Shown here one piece after another: positions 45,600 through 46,859 of a stretch of DNA of 64,000 nt (its first letter is position 1; every line of letters starts with the position of its first letter). The stretch is taken from contig NZ_CP032094.1 of NCBI RefSeq assembly GCF_003544875.1, forward strand, positions 992,001-1,056,000, in the 5' to 3' direction. The notes beneath the pieces were generated by a model, which made no database searches, was not told the DNA's origin, and saw nothing but the letters and a program-made list of their open reading frames with translations. The position numbers were made by a program, and so were the translations under genes. This DNA comes from Vibrio alfacsensis (GTDB lineage Bacteria; Pseudomonadota; Gammaproteobacteria; Enterobacterales; Vibrionaceae).

Positions 45600-46859
45600 T
45601 AGCGTTGTGGTGGCGTACCTTCTGCATTAGACGCAATCGCATCAATTTGTACATCAGCTCCCATCGCGATTTCTGAAACTCCAATAACGGTTCTCGCAGG
45701 TAGCTCACCATTAAAACGTCTTGTAAACATCATCAATCGTTGCCAAATGCGCGATATCTTTTACTTGAATGTTCACCTTAACCAAATCGTCCATTTCATG
45801 GTTAATGCTTTCCAAAATAGACTTAATATTATTCAAACACTTCTCAGCTTGCTCCTTTACTCCCCCATCAATCAATTGATTTGTCGTAGCATCAATTGGC
45901 AATTGTGCTGAGATATGATTGTAATGAGAGAATGCCACCGTTTGTGTAGAAAATCCGTCCATCGGGGCATTTGGCGTGTTATTTGCCTTAATCACAATAC
46001 CATGTCGGTCTTCCACTGCTTGCGGTGGCGTGCCATCACCATGTGAAACAACCGCATCAATTTGAATCGATGCGCCCATAGGTAAGGCTGAAGCAACAAC
46101 TACGCTGCGCGCGGGAACATAAGCAACCGTTCTTGCGATGGCTGAATCAGGGAAAAACGTACTGTATGTTTCATTTACGTCTTTCATATCGGCTAAATCT
46201 TTAAGATAGATTGTTATCTTAACAATATCATCAAAGGAACATCAATACTTTCAGAACAGATTTAATATTCGTCAAACATTGTGCTGTTTGCTGCTTGATG
46301 TCACCCGAAATAATATTTCCTGTAGATGGTTCAATTGGCAGTTGAGCAGAAATATTGTTGTAATGAGAAAACGCAACGGTTTGAGAAGAAATATGGCTCA
46401 GTGGTGCCTTTTCTGTATTACGAGATAGCTTGATTAAATCACATGGTTTTTGTGGCGTCGTCCCCTCACCGTTTGAGATCAGGGCATCCATTTGCACCAA
46501 AGCCCCCTCTAGAGGCAGAGCATGAATAGCAACTACGCTACGTGTTGGAACTAGCGTCGAAAAGAAAGTTGAATACACTTTATCTAAAACTTCGAGGTCA
46601 GCGATATCAGTAAGGAATACATTGATTTTAACCACATCATCCATTACATGATCGATACTTTCTACAATGCGCTTTATATTTAAAGACATTGTTTGATCTG
46701 AGCCTCAATACCACCATCGACAAGTAAACCAGTTTGAGCATCTATCGGGAGCTGAGCTGAAATATTGTTATAGTGTGAAAATGCAACGCTTTGTGTTGAC
46801 TCTTGATTAATTGGTGCATTTTCCGTATTTCGAGAAAGTTTGACTATCGTGCTACCCAT
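45600..46859 (-). CDS. Triple RidA/YjgF-domain fusion protein, frame breaks
   Basis: Three RidA-like domains in a row, each with AFSHYNNISAQLPID-type and NIKxIxES-type blocks and ending near an Arg-Ser/Thr-Val motif (TRSVVAIHALP, ARSVVVASALP, ARTVIGVSEI). The domain 1-2 join is in one unbroken frame (46231-46689) and the 2-3 join in another (45711-46187), so fusion is directly seen. Breaks at about 46683, 46215-46250 and 45712 are small indels. The full product is about 420 residues, starting at ATG 46859 or 46895. RidA enzymes deaminate reactive enamines/imines and normally act as trimers of 130-residue chains. Confidence 0.8.

What the first reader, a model, noticed from the sequence alone, without database searches (positions are those of the whole stretch)
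45600..46859. Three RidA domains fused in one polypeptide
RidA/YjgF proteins are about 130 residues and form homotrimers with active sites between subunits. Here three copies follow each other, with two unbroken reading frames crossing both domain joints (46231-46689 and 45711-46187). Each repeat keeps the Arg of the RSVV/RTV motif that binds the substrate carboxylate in RidA. The chain could fold as a covalent pseudo-trimer with three different interfaces, allowing division of labour among the sites. It sits beside a GltS-like carrier and an Rnk-like protein at the edge of the accessory block.
Basis: partly seen in the sequence, partly recalled or inferred. Interest (0 to 1): 0.75.

Follow-up and report, generated by a model that had tools for sequence, protein, structure and literature searches.

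The report
Broken copy of triple RidA gene
This is a damaged copy of a known bacterial gene that fuses three RidA units into one protein; in the genomes checked, intact copies usually share the genome with enzymes that release carbamate, which hints at what the protein may do.

Summary
Three RidA repeats do lie in tandem at 45605-46859 (minus strand), each with the substrate-binding Arg. As deposited they are not one reading frame: three frame changes, one inside each repeat, leave four pieces that tile an intact 421-residue relative. Unrelated genes of the window are frame-broken too (7 of 27 tested; 2 of 74 on chromosome 1), and the pieces look purifying-selected, so assembly error or very recent damage is likelier than old decay.

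The architecture is known: Niehaus et al. 2015 named it 3x-RidA and presumed a covalent trimer. AlphaFold of an intact relative gives one body (pTM 0.91); its best whole-chain PDB match is the chorismatases.

Not found in the papers searched: 3x-RidA tracks carbamate-releasing enzymes. In the genus 72 of 75 genomes with it have carbamate kinase, against 34 of 121 without; of the three exceptions two have urease beside it, one is 79% complete. Outside the genus: 24 of 25 against 37 of 249. The window copy sits near a urease operon. p values are not phylogeny-corrected; function is inferred, not tested.

The parts
46683..46859 (-). 3x-RidA piece 1: first half of repeat 1 (matches residues 1-59 of the intact V. 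jasicida protein)
   Evidence: tblastn 76% identity, no stop inside
46249..46683 (-). 3x-RidA piece 2, other frame: rest of repeat 1 and first half of repeat 2 (residues 60-204)
   Evidence: tblastn 71%, no stop inside; PF01042 74.3 bits
45714..46235 (-). 3x-RidA piece 3: rest of repeat 2 and most of repeat 3 (residues 210-383)
   Evidence: tblastn 74%, no stop inside; PF01042 93.4 bits
45605..45730 (-). 3x-RidA piece 4, other frame: end of repeat 3 (residues 379-420)
   Evidence: tblastn 62%, no stop inside; PF01042 16.3 bits, below cut-off
45017..45409 (+). Rnk-like protein (nucleoside diphosphate kinase regulator family), intact
   Evidence: NF004396 137 bits; 62% to the gene beside 3x-RidA in V. 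jasicida
42519..43330 (+). regulator (AraC-type, name recalled) in two frames, broken; its counterpart lies two genes from 3x-RidA in V. jasicida
   Evidence: tblastn pieces at 46% (2 stops inside) and 79%
37545..39077 (+). solute-binding protein of an ABC transporter between urease genes and 3x-RidA (a nickel or peptide role is a guess)
   Evidence: PF00496 218.5 bits
36246..37091 (-). UreD urease accessory protein
   Evidence: PF01774 176.5 bits
35925..36227 (-). urease gamma subunit
   Evidence: PF00547 159 bits
35598..35912 (-). urease beta subunit (by similarity to the V. jasicida gene)
   Evidence: tblastn 51% over residues 1-85, no stop inside
33898..35588 (-). urease alpha subunit, broken into several pieces
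   Evidence: TIGR01792 matches in five fragments; stops inside the alignments
32708..33451 (-). UreF urease accessory protein
   Evidence: PF01730 122.7 bits
32096..32695 (-). UreG-like gene, broken
   Evidence: tblastn 61% with 5 stops inside

Best explanation
The locus is one 3x-RidA gene, broken in this record by three frame changes inside its repeats, most likely indel errors in a poor stretch of the assembly, otherwise very recent damage. The intact protein (shown in relatives) has about 421 residues and by prediction folds as a single-chain pseudo-trimer with three clefts between repeats, each with the carboxylate-binding Arg. Inferred function: it processes or removes a reactive small molecule tied to carbamate-releasing catabolism (carbamate kinase reactions, urease): carbamate itself, a carbamoyl-phosphate or cyanate by-product, or a carbamoylated metabolite. 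Shown: homology, distribution, co-occurrence, neighbourhood. Predicted: fold. Inferred only: substrate and reaction.
For: Pieces tile an intact relative in order. In the genus 83 of 87 loci have an open frame of 419 residues or more. Fold. Genus: carbamate kinase in 72 of 75 genomes with 3x-RidA, 34 of 121 without (OR 61, p 3e-23, not phylogeny-corrected); exceptions are the window's genome and G201, both with urease near 3x-RidA, and G141 (79% complete). Within arcA-positive genomes 72 of 75 against 31 of 89. Outside the genus 24 of 25 against 37 of 249 (hand count; test); the exception has urease alpha 2.8 kb away. Of 39 non-Vibrio genomes chosen from the 80 named loci, 27 have carbamate kinase and 9 of the other 12 urease alpha. 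Within the flanks held (up to 8 kb), 19 of 80 named loci have carbamate kinase (6) or urease genes (13), against about 0.6 by a rough chance estimate. The kinases sit in different pathways. PMC4433059 reports RidA clustering with carbamoyl-phosphate genes and ridA mutants harmed by carbamoyl-phosphate overproduction.
Against: 61 of 80 named loci show neither enzyme in the flanks held, 21 of the 80 being cut short; of 19 further stretches 17 show neither. Urease alone does not track 3x-RidA in the genus (p 0.08). arcA also tracks it, more weakly (75 of 75 against 89 of 121). Three of the 39 genomes have neither enzyme: an Azoarcus and two MAGs, one of which has a ureG-like gene beside 3x-RidA. 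Pilot assays with single-domain S. enterica RidA did not support hydrolysis of carbamoyl phosphate or isocyanate (PMC4433059). Neighbouring island genes (urease alpha, UreG, regulator) are broken too, which would also fit real decay.
Confidence: 0.5

Rival explanations
1. 3x-RidA is RidA in fused form, a 2-aminoacrylate/imine deaminase; its company with carbamate kinase and urease reflects genomes rich in amino-acid, agmatine or urea catabolism, not a shared substrate.
For: The essential Arg is kept in all three repeats of 168 of 177. arcA also tracks it. Most loci lack linked genes in the flanks held. Replacing Tyr17 or Glu120 equivalents by Ala had little effect in S. enterica RidA (PMC4433059).
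Against: The association with carbamate kinase holds within arcA-positive genomes (72 of 75 against 31 of 89) and outside the genus (24 of 25 against 37 of 249). Gly31 to Ala and Glu120 to Asp recur in all three repeats. The window's genome also has ordinary single RidA genes.
Confidence: 0.35
2. The window copy is a true pseudogene: the urease and 3x-RidA island is being lost in this strain.
For: Of nine island homologues I compared, four are broken: 3x-RidA, urease alpha, UreG, regulator. Chromosome 1 is nearly clean (2 of 74), so the assembly is not bad throughout.
Against: Unrelated conserved genes in the same 45 kb, 86-93% identical to V. jasicida, are broken as well (7 of 27), among them one whose counterpart is a single open frame of 669-709 residues in 3 of 3 relatives. 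pN 0.17 and pS 0.77 for the pieces are like intact pairs.
Confidence: 0.3
3. Three separate RidA genes lie side by side.
For: The ATG- or GTG-started ORFs are separate.
Against: The breaks are inside repeats, and open frames run across both joints. In the genus 83 of 87 loci are single open frames of 419 residues or more.
Confidence: 0.02

Closest known systems
3x-RidA (Niehaus et al. 2015, PMC4433059; example EF_0115 of Enterococcus faecalis)
   Same: Three RidA domains in tandem in one chain, presumed a covalent trimer unit (passages and section 5)
   Different: The window copy is frame-broken as deposited. EF_0115 itself was not compared here.
RidA (homotrimeric 2-aminoacrylate/imine deaminase)
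   Different: One chain instead of three; Gly31 mostly Ala, Glu120 mostly Asp, Tyr17 mostly Ser
Chorismatases (4bps, 5a3k, 5ag3)
   Different: 10-14% identity in the aligned part; different, known reaction
Cyanuric acid hydrolase/barbiturase (Toblerone fold)
   Same: Single chain of three homologous domains with pseudo three-fold symmetry, compared with YjgF-like trimers by its authors (PMC4051656 passages)
   Different: Single active site inside the barrel with Ser-Lys dyads; not among the 50 entries shown
FIST domain of FBXO22
   Different: Ubiquitin-ligase subunit without an obvious ligand pocket

Membership tests
3x-RidA | Three RidA domains in tandem | tested here: met
   Pieces tile an intact three-domain relative in order; three PF01042 stretches in each of three intact relatives scanned
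3x-RidA | One continuous polypeptide | tested here: not met
   Three frame changes in this record, so it is filed as a broken copy, not a working member. Met in 83 of 87 genus loci
RidA subfamily | Conserved Arg (Arg105 of TdcF) | tested here: met
   In all three repeats of the window pieces; RRR in 168 of 177 homologues
RidA subfamily | Conserved Glu (Glu120 of TdcF) | tested here: not met
   Asp in the window repeats; DDD in 144 of 177 homologues. Hand mapping of positions
RidA subfamily | Trimeric or trimer-like assembly | tested here: inconclusive
   Predicted for an intact relative only
RidA subfamily | 2-aminoacrylate/imine deaminase activity | not testable with these tools
   Needs purified protein
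Chorismatase | Chorismate-binding site and sequence motifs | not tested
   Only the fold was compared; no entry named chorismatase is among the 48 PDB sequence matches at E 0.001

The most novel reading that the evidence does not exclude
3x-RidA is an enzyme of carbamate chemistry: a single-chain pseudo-trimer whose altered pockets (Ala at 31, Asp at 120) hydrolyse carbamate or disarm a carbamoyl-phosphate or cyanate by-product. It would be a missing partner of carbamate kinases and some ureases, and would explain the RidA-carbamoyl-phosphate link left open in 2015.
Probability: 0.2. Interest if true: 0.8.

Novelty: new member of a known kind. Interest (0 to 1): 0.42.

Why it matters
[quoted passage not shown] The fused form named there is common (562 stretches in one set of species genomes) and, in the sets tested here, rarely found without carbamate kinase or urease. 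That gives a narrow substrate space and a specific protein to assay.

Tried and rejected
Three separate genes: rejected, the breaks lie inside the repeats. Indel noise over the whole assembly: not supported, chromosome 1 is nearly clean (2 of 74). My first, cruder count (6 of 74 in own, 3 of 72 in the control direction) also counted stops inside single-frame alignments, so I changed to counting frame changes only. Division of labour by loss of Arg in one repeat: rare in the 177 (9 of 177 lack it in some repeat), though 4 of the 16 proteins lack it in repeat 1 or 3. Urease as a general driver in the genus: not supported (p 0.08). arcA as the driver: weaker. Cyanuric acid hydrolase is not among the 50 entries shown by the structural second look, which does not exclude it. 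A search for Arg105 and similar spellings in PMC1884159 found nothing. One hit (PMC3135505) used RIDA for another thing. A distance count within 15 kb gave 20 of 87 genus loci, but from a truncated list of kinases and places that I picked out by eye, so I do not lean on it. The FSHYN-type motif is invariant at His and Tyr in all repeats of the 177, but the 80 loci among them were found with patterns holding it and filtered for two copies of it, so this is partly built in.

Full report
What is there. The window is part of chromosome-sized contig 2 of a 4.9-Mb genome in three contigs. On the minus strand, 45605-46859, three RidA repeats follow one another. The stop-to-stop frames are 46680-46910, 46231-46704, 45711-46241 and 45599-45760. 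Searched apart, they tile an intact 421-residue V. jasicida protein in order: residues 1-59, 60-204, 210-383 and 379-420.

Error or decay. With genes of two relatives as probes, 7 of 27 tested window genes change frame; their best alignments are 86-93% identical to V. jasicida. By sequence I take three of them for RNase II, a DEAD-box helicase and acetate kinase (names recalled, from no call). Elsewhere it is 1 of 19 in neighbouring chromosome-2 stretches, 2 of 74 in 200 kb of chromosome 1, 0 of 72 in the reverse comparison, and 0 of 6 each way between the two relatives (p 0.0012 for window against chromosome 1). The gene at 47537 is one open frame of 669-709 residues in 3 of 3 relatives. The 3x-RidA pieces show pN 0.17 and pS 0.77 against V. 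jasicida, like intact pairs at such distances (0.15-0.20 and 0.76-0.81; synonymous change is near saturation). I read this as a local run of assembly indels or very recent damage. Against that, urease alpha, UreG and a regulator of the same island are broken, while UreD, UreF, urease beta and gamma and Rnk are open. Raw reads would settle it.

Not new as an architecture. PMC4433059 (passages and sections 5, 6 and 10 read) names 3x-RidA and calls such proteins presumably covalently linked trimer units. A library search for '3x-RidA' returned that paper alone. A scan of species genomes found 562 stretches that encode relatives, the best 80 kept; by their record titles these include Vibrio, Photobacterium, Oceanisphaera, Psychrobacter, Marinobacter, Desulfobulbaceae, Ancylomarina and Bacillus. 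In the genus, 75 of 196 genomes match; outside it, 25 of 274 in the order set (my subtraction).

Active sites. Of 200 homologues (80 loci, 120 listed proteins) 191 are distinct and 177 were kept (14 dropped by length). The Arg is RRR in 168; Glu120 is DDD in 144; Gly31 is AAA in 129; Tyr17 is Ser in 158, 160 and 84 of 177 for repeats 1 to 3. Repeats differ in detail: Gly at 31 (43) and Ala at 30 (90) occur mainly in repeat 3. Positions are my hand mapping from an ordinary RidA of the same genome. PMC4960622 (passages) ties a Lys-Glu salt bridge to trimer assembly; I take that Glu to be position 120, here mostly Asp.

What keeps it company. In the genus, carbamate kinase (TIGR00746; 14 weak hits set aside) is in 72 of 75 genomes with 3x-RidA and 34 of 121 without. 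Of the three exceptions the window's genome and G201 have urease near 3x-RidA, and G141 is 79% complete. Within arcA-positive genomes it is 72 of 75 against 31 of 89; arcA itself is in 75 of 75 against 89 of 121. Outside the genus it is 24 of 25 against 37 of 249 (hand count), and the exception G428 has urease alpha 2.8 kb from 3x-RidA. Of 39 non-Vibrio genomes that I picked from the 80 named loci, 27 have carbamate kinase and 9 of the other 12 have urease alpha; the three with neither are an Azoarcus and two MAGs, one MAG with a ureG-like gene beside 3x-RidA. Physical neighbours in the flanks held: carbamate kinase at 6 and urease genes at 13 of 80 named loci, neither at 61; a rough chance estimate is 0.6 (with assumed copy numbers). 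Of 19 further stretches one has urease and one the agmatine pathway. The kinase sits in different pathways: agmatine deiminase with a putrescine/ornithine carbamoyltransferase (L049), FdrA with AllG and AllH of oxamate carbamoyltransferase (L105), dihydropyrimidinase (L098). Urease alone does not track 3x-RidA (37 of 75 against 46 of 121, p 0.08). None of these p values is corrected for phylogeny.

Reading. Urease releases carbamate, and carbamate kinase releases it from carbamoyl phosphate (established chemistry). A pocket made for small carboxylates, here altered, is a plausible place to hydrolyse carbamate or disarm a carbamoyl-phosphate by-product. The 2015 paper already links the RidA subfamily to carbamoyl-phosphate genes, carbamate kinase among them in S. 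enterica, and found ridA mutants sensitive to carbamoyl-phosphate overproduction; its pilot assays did not support hydrolysis of carbamoyl phosphate or isocyanate by single-domain RidA. What I add is that the fused form tracks carbamate kinase and, failing that, urease. Paper searches joining RidA or L-PSP with carbamate kinase, urease or carbamate listed no other paper that by title or abstract start ties 3x-RidA to them; I saw listings there, not full texts.

Noticed in passing
window 7651-52055: Seven of 27 tested genes change frame, far more than on chromosome 1 (2 of 74): a poor stretch of assembly or a damaged one.
   Followed up: partly
window 32096-35588: Urease alpha and UreG of this operon are broken, while UreD, UreF and the beta and gamma subunits are open.
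   Followed up: partly
proteins P0001, P0003, P0004 (sequences): Relatives of 634, 565 and 579 residues with what look like four RidA repeats or part repeats.
   Followed up: no
G024, G108, G029 and others: Several genomes carry two or three 3x-RidA genes, some beside carbamate kinase and some not.
   Followed up: no
L001 (own genome C1:426757-430119): The ordinary RidA gene lies beside genes that look like aspartate carbamoyltransferase subunits (names recalled), with arcA about 3 kb away, as the 2015 paper would predict.
   Followed up: no
window 43591-44847: The supposed GltS-like carrier has no Pfam or NCBIfam match at E 0.1.
   Followed up: no
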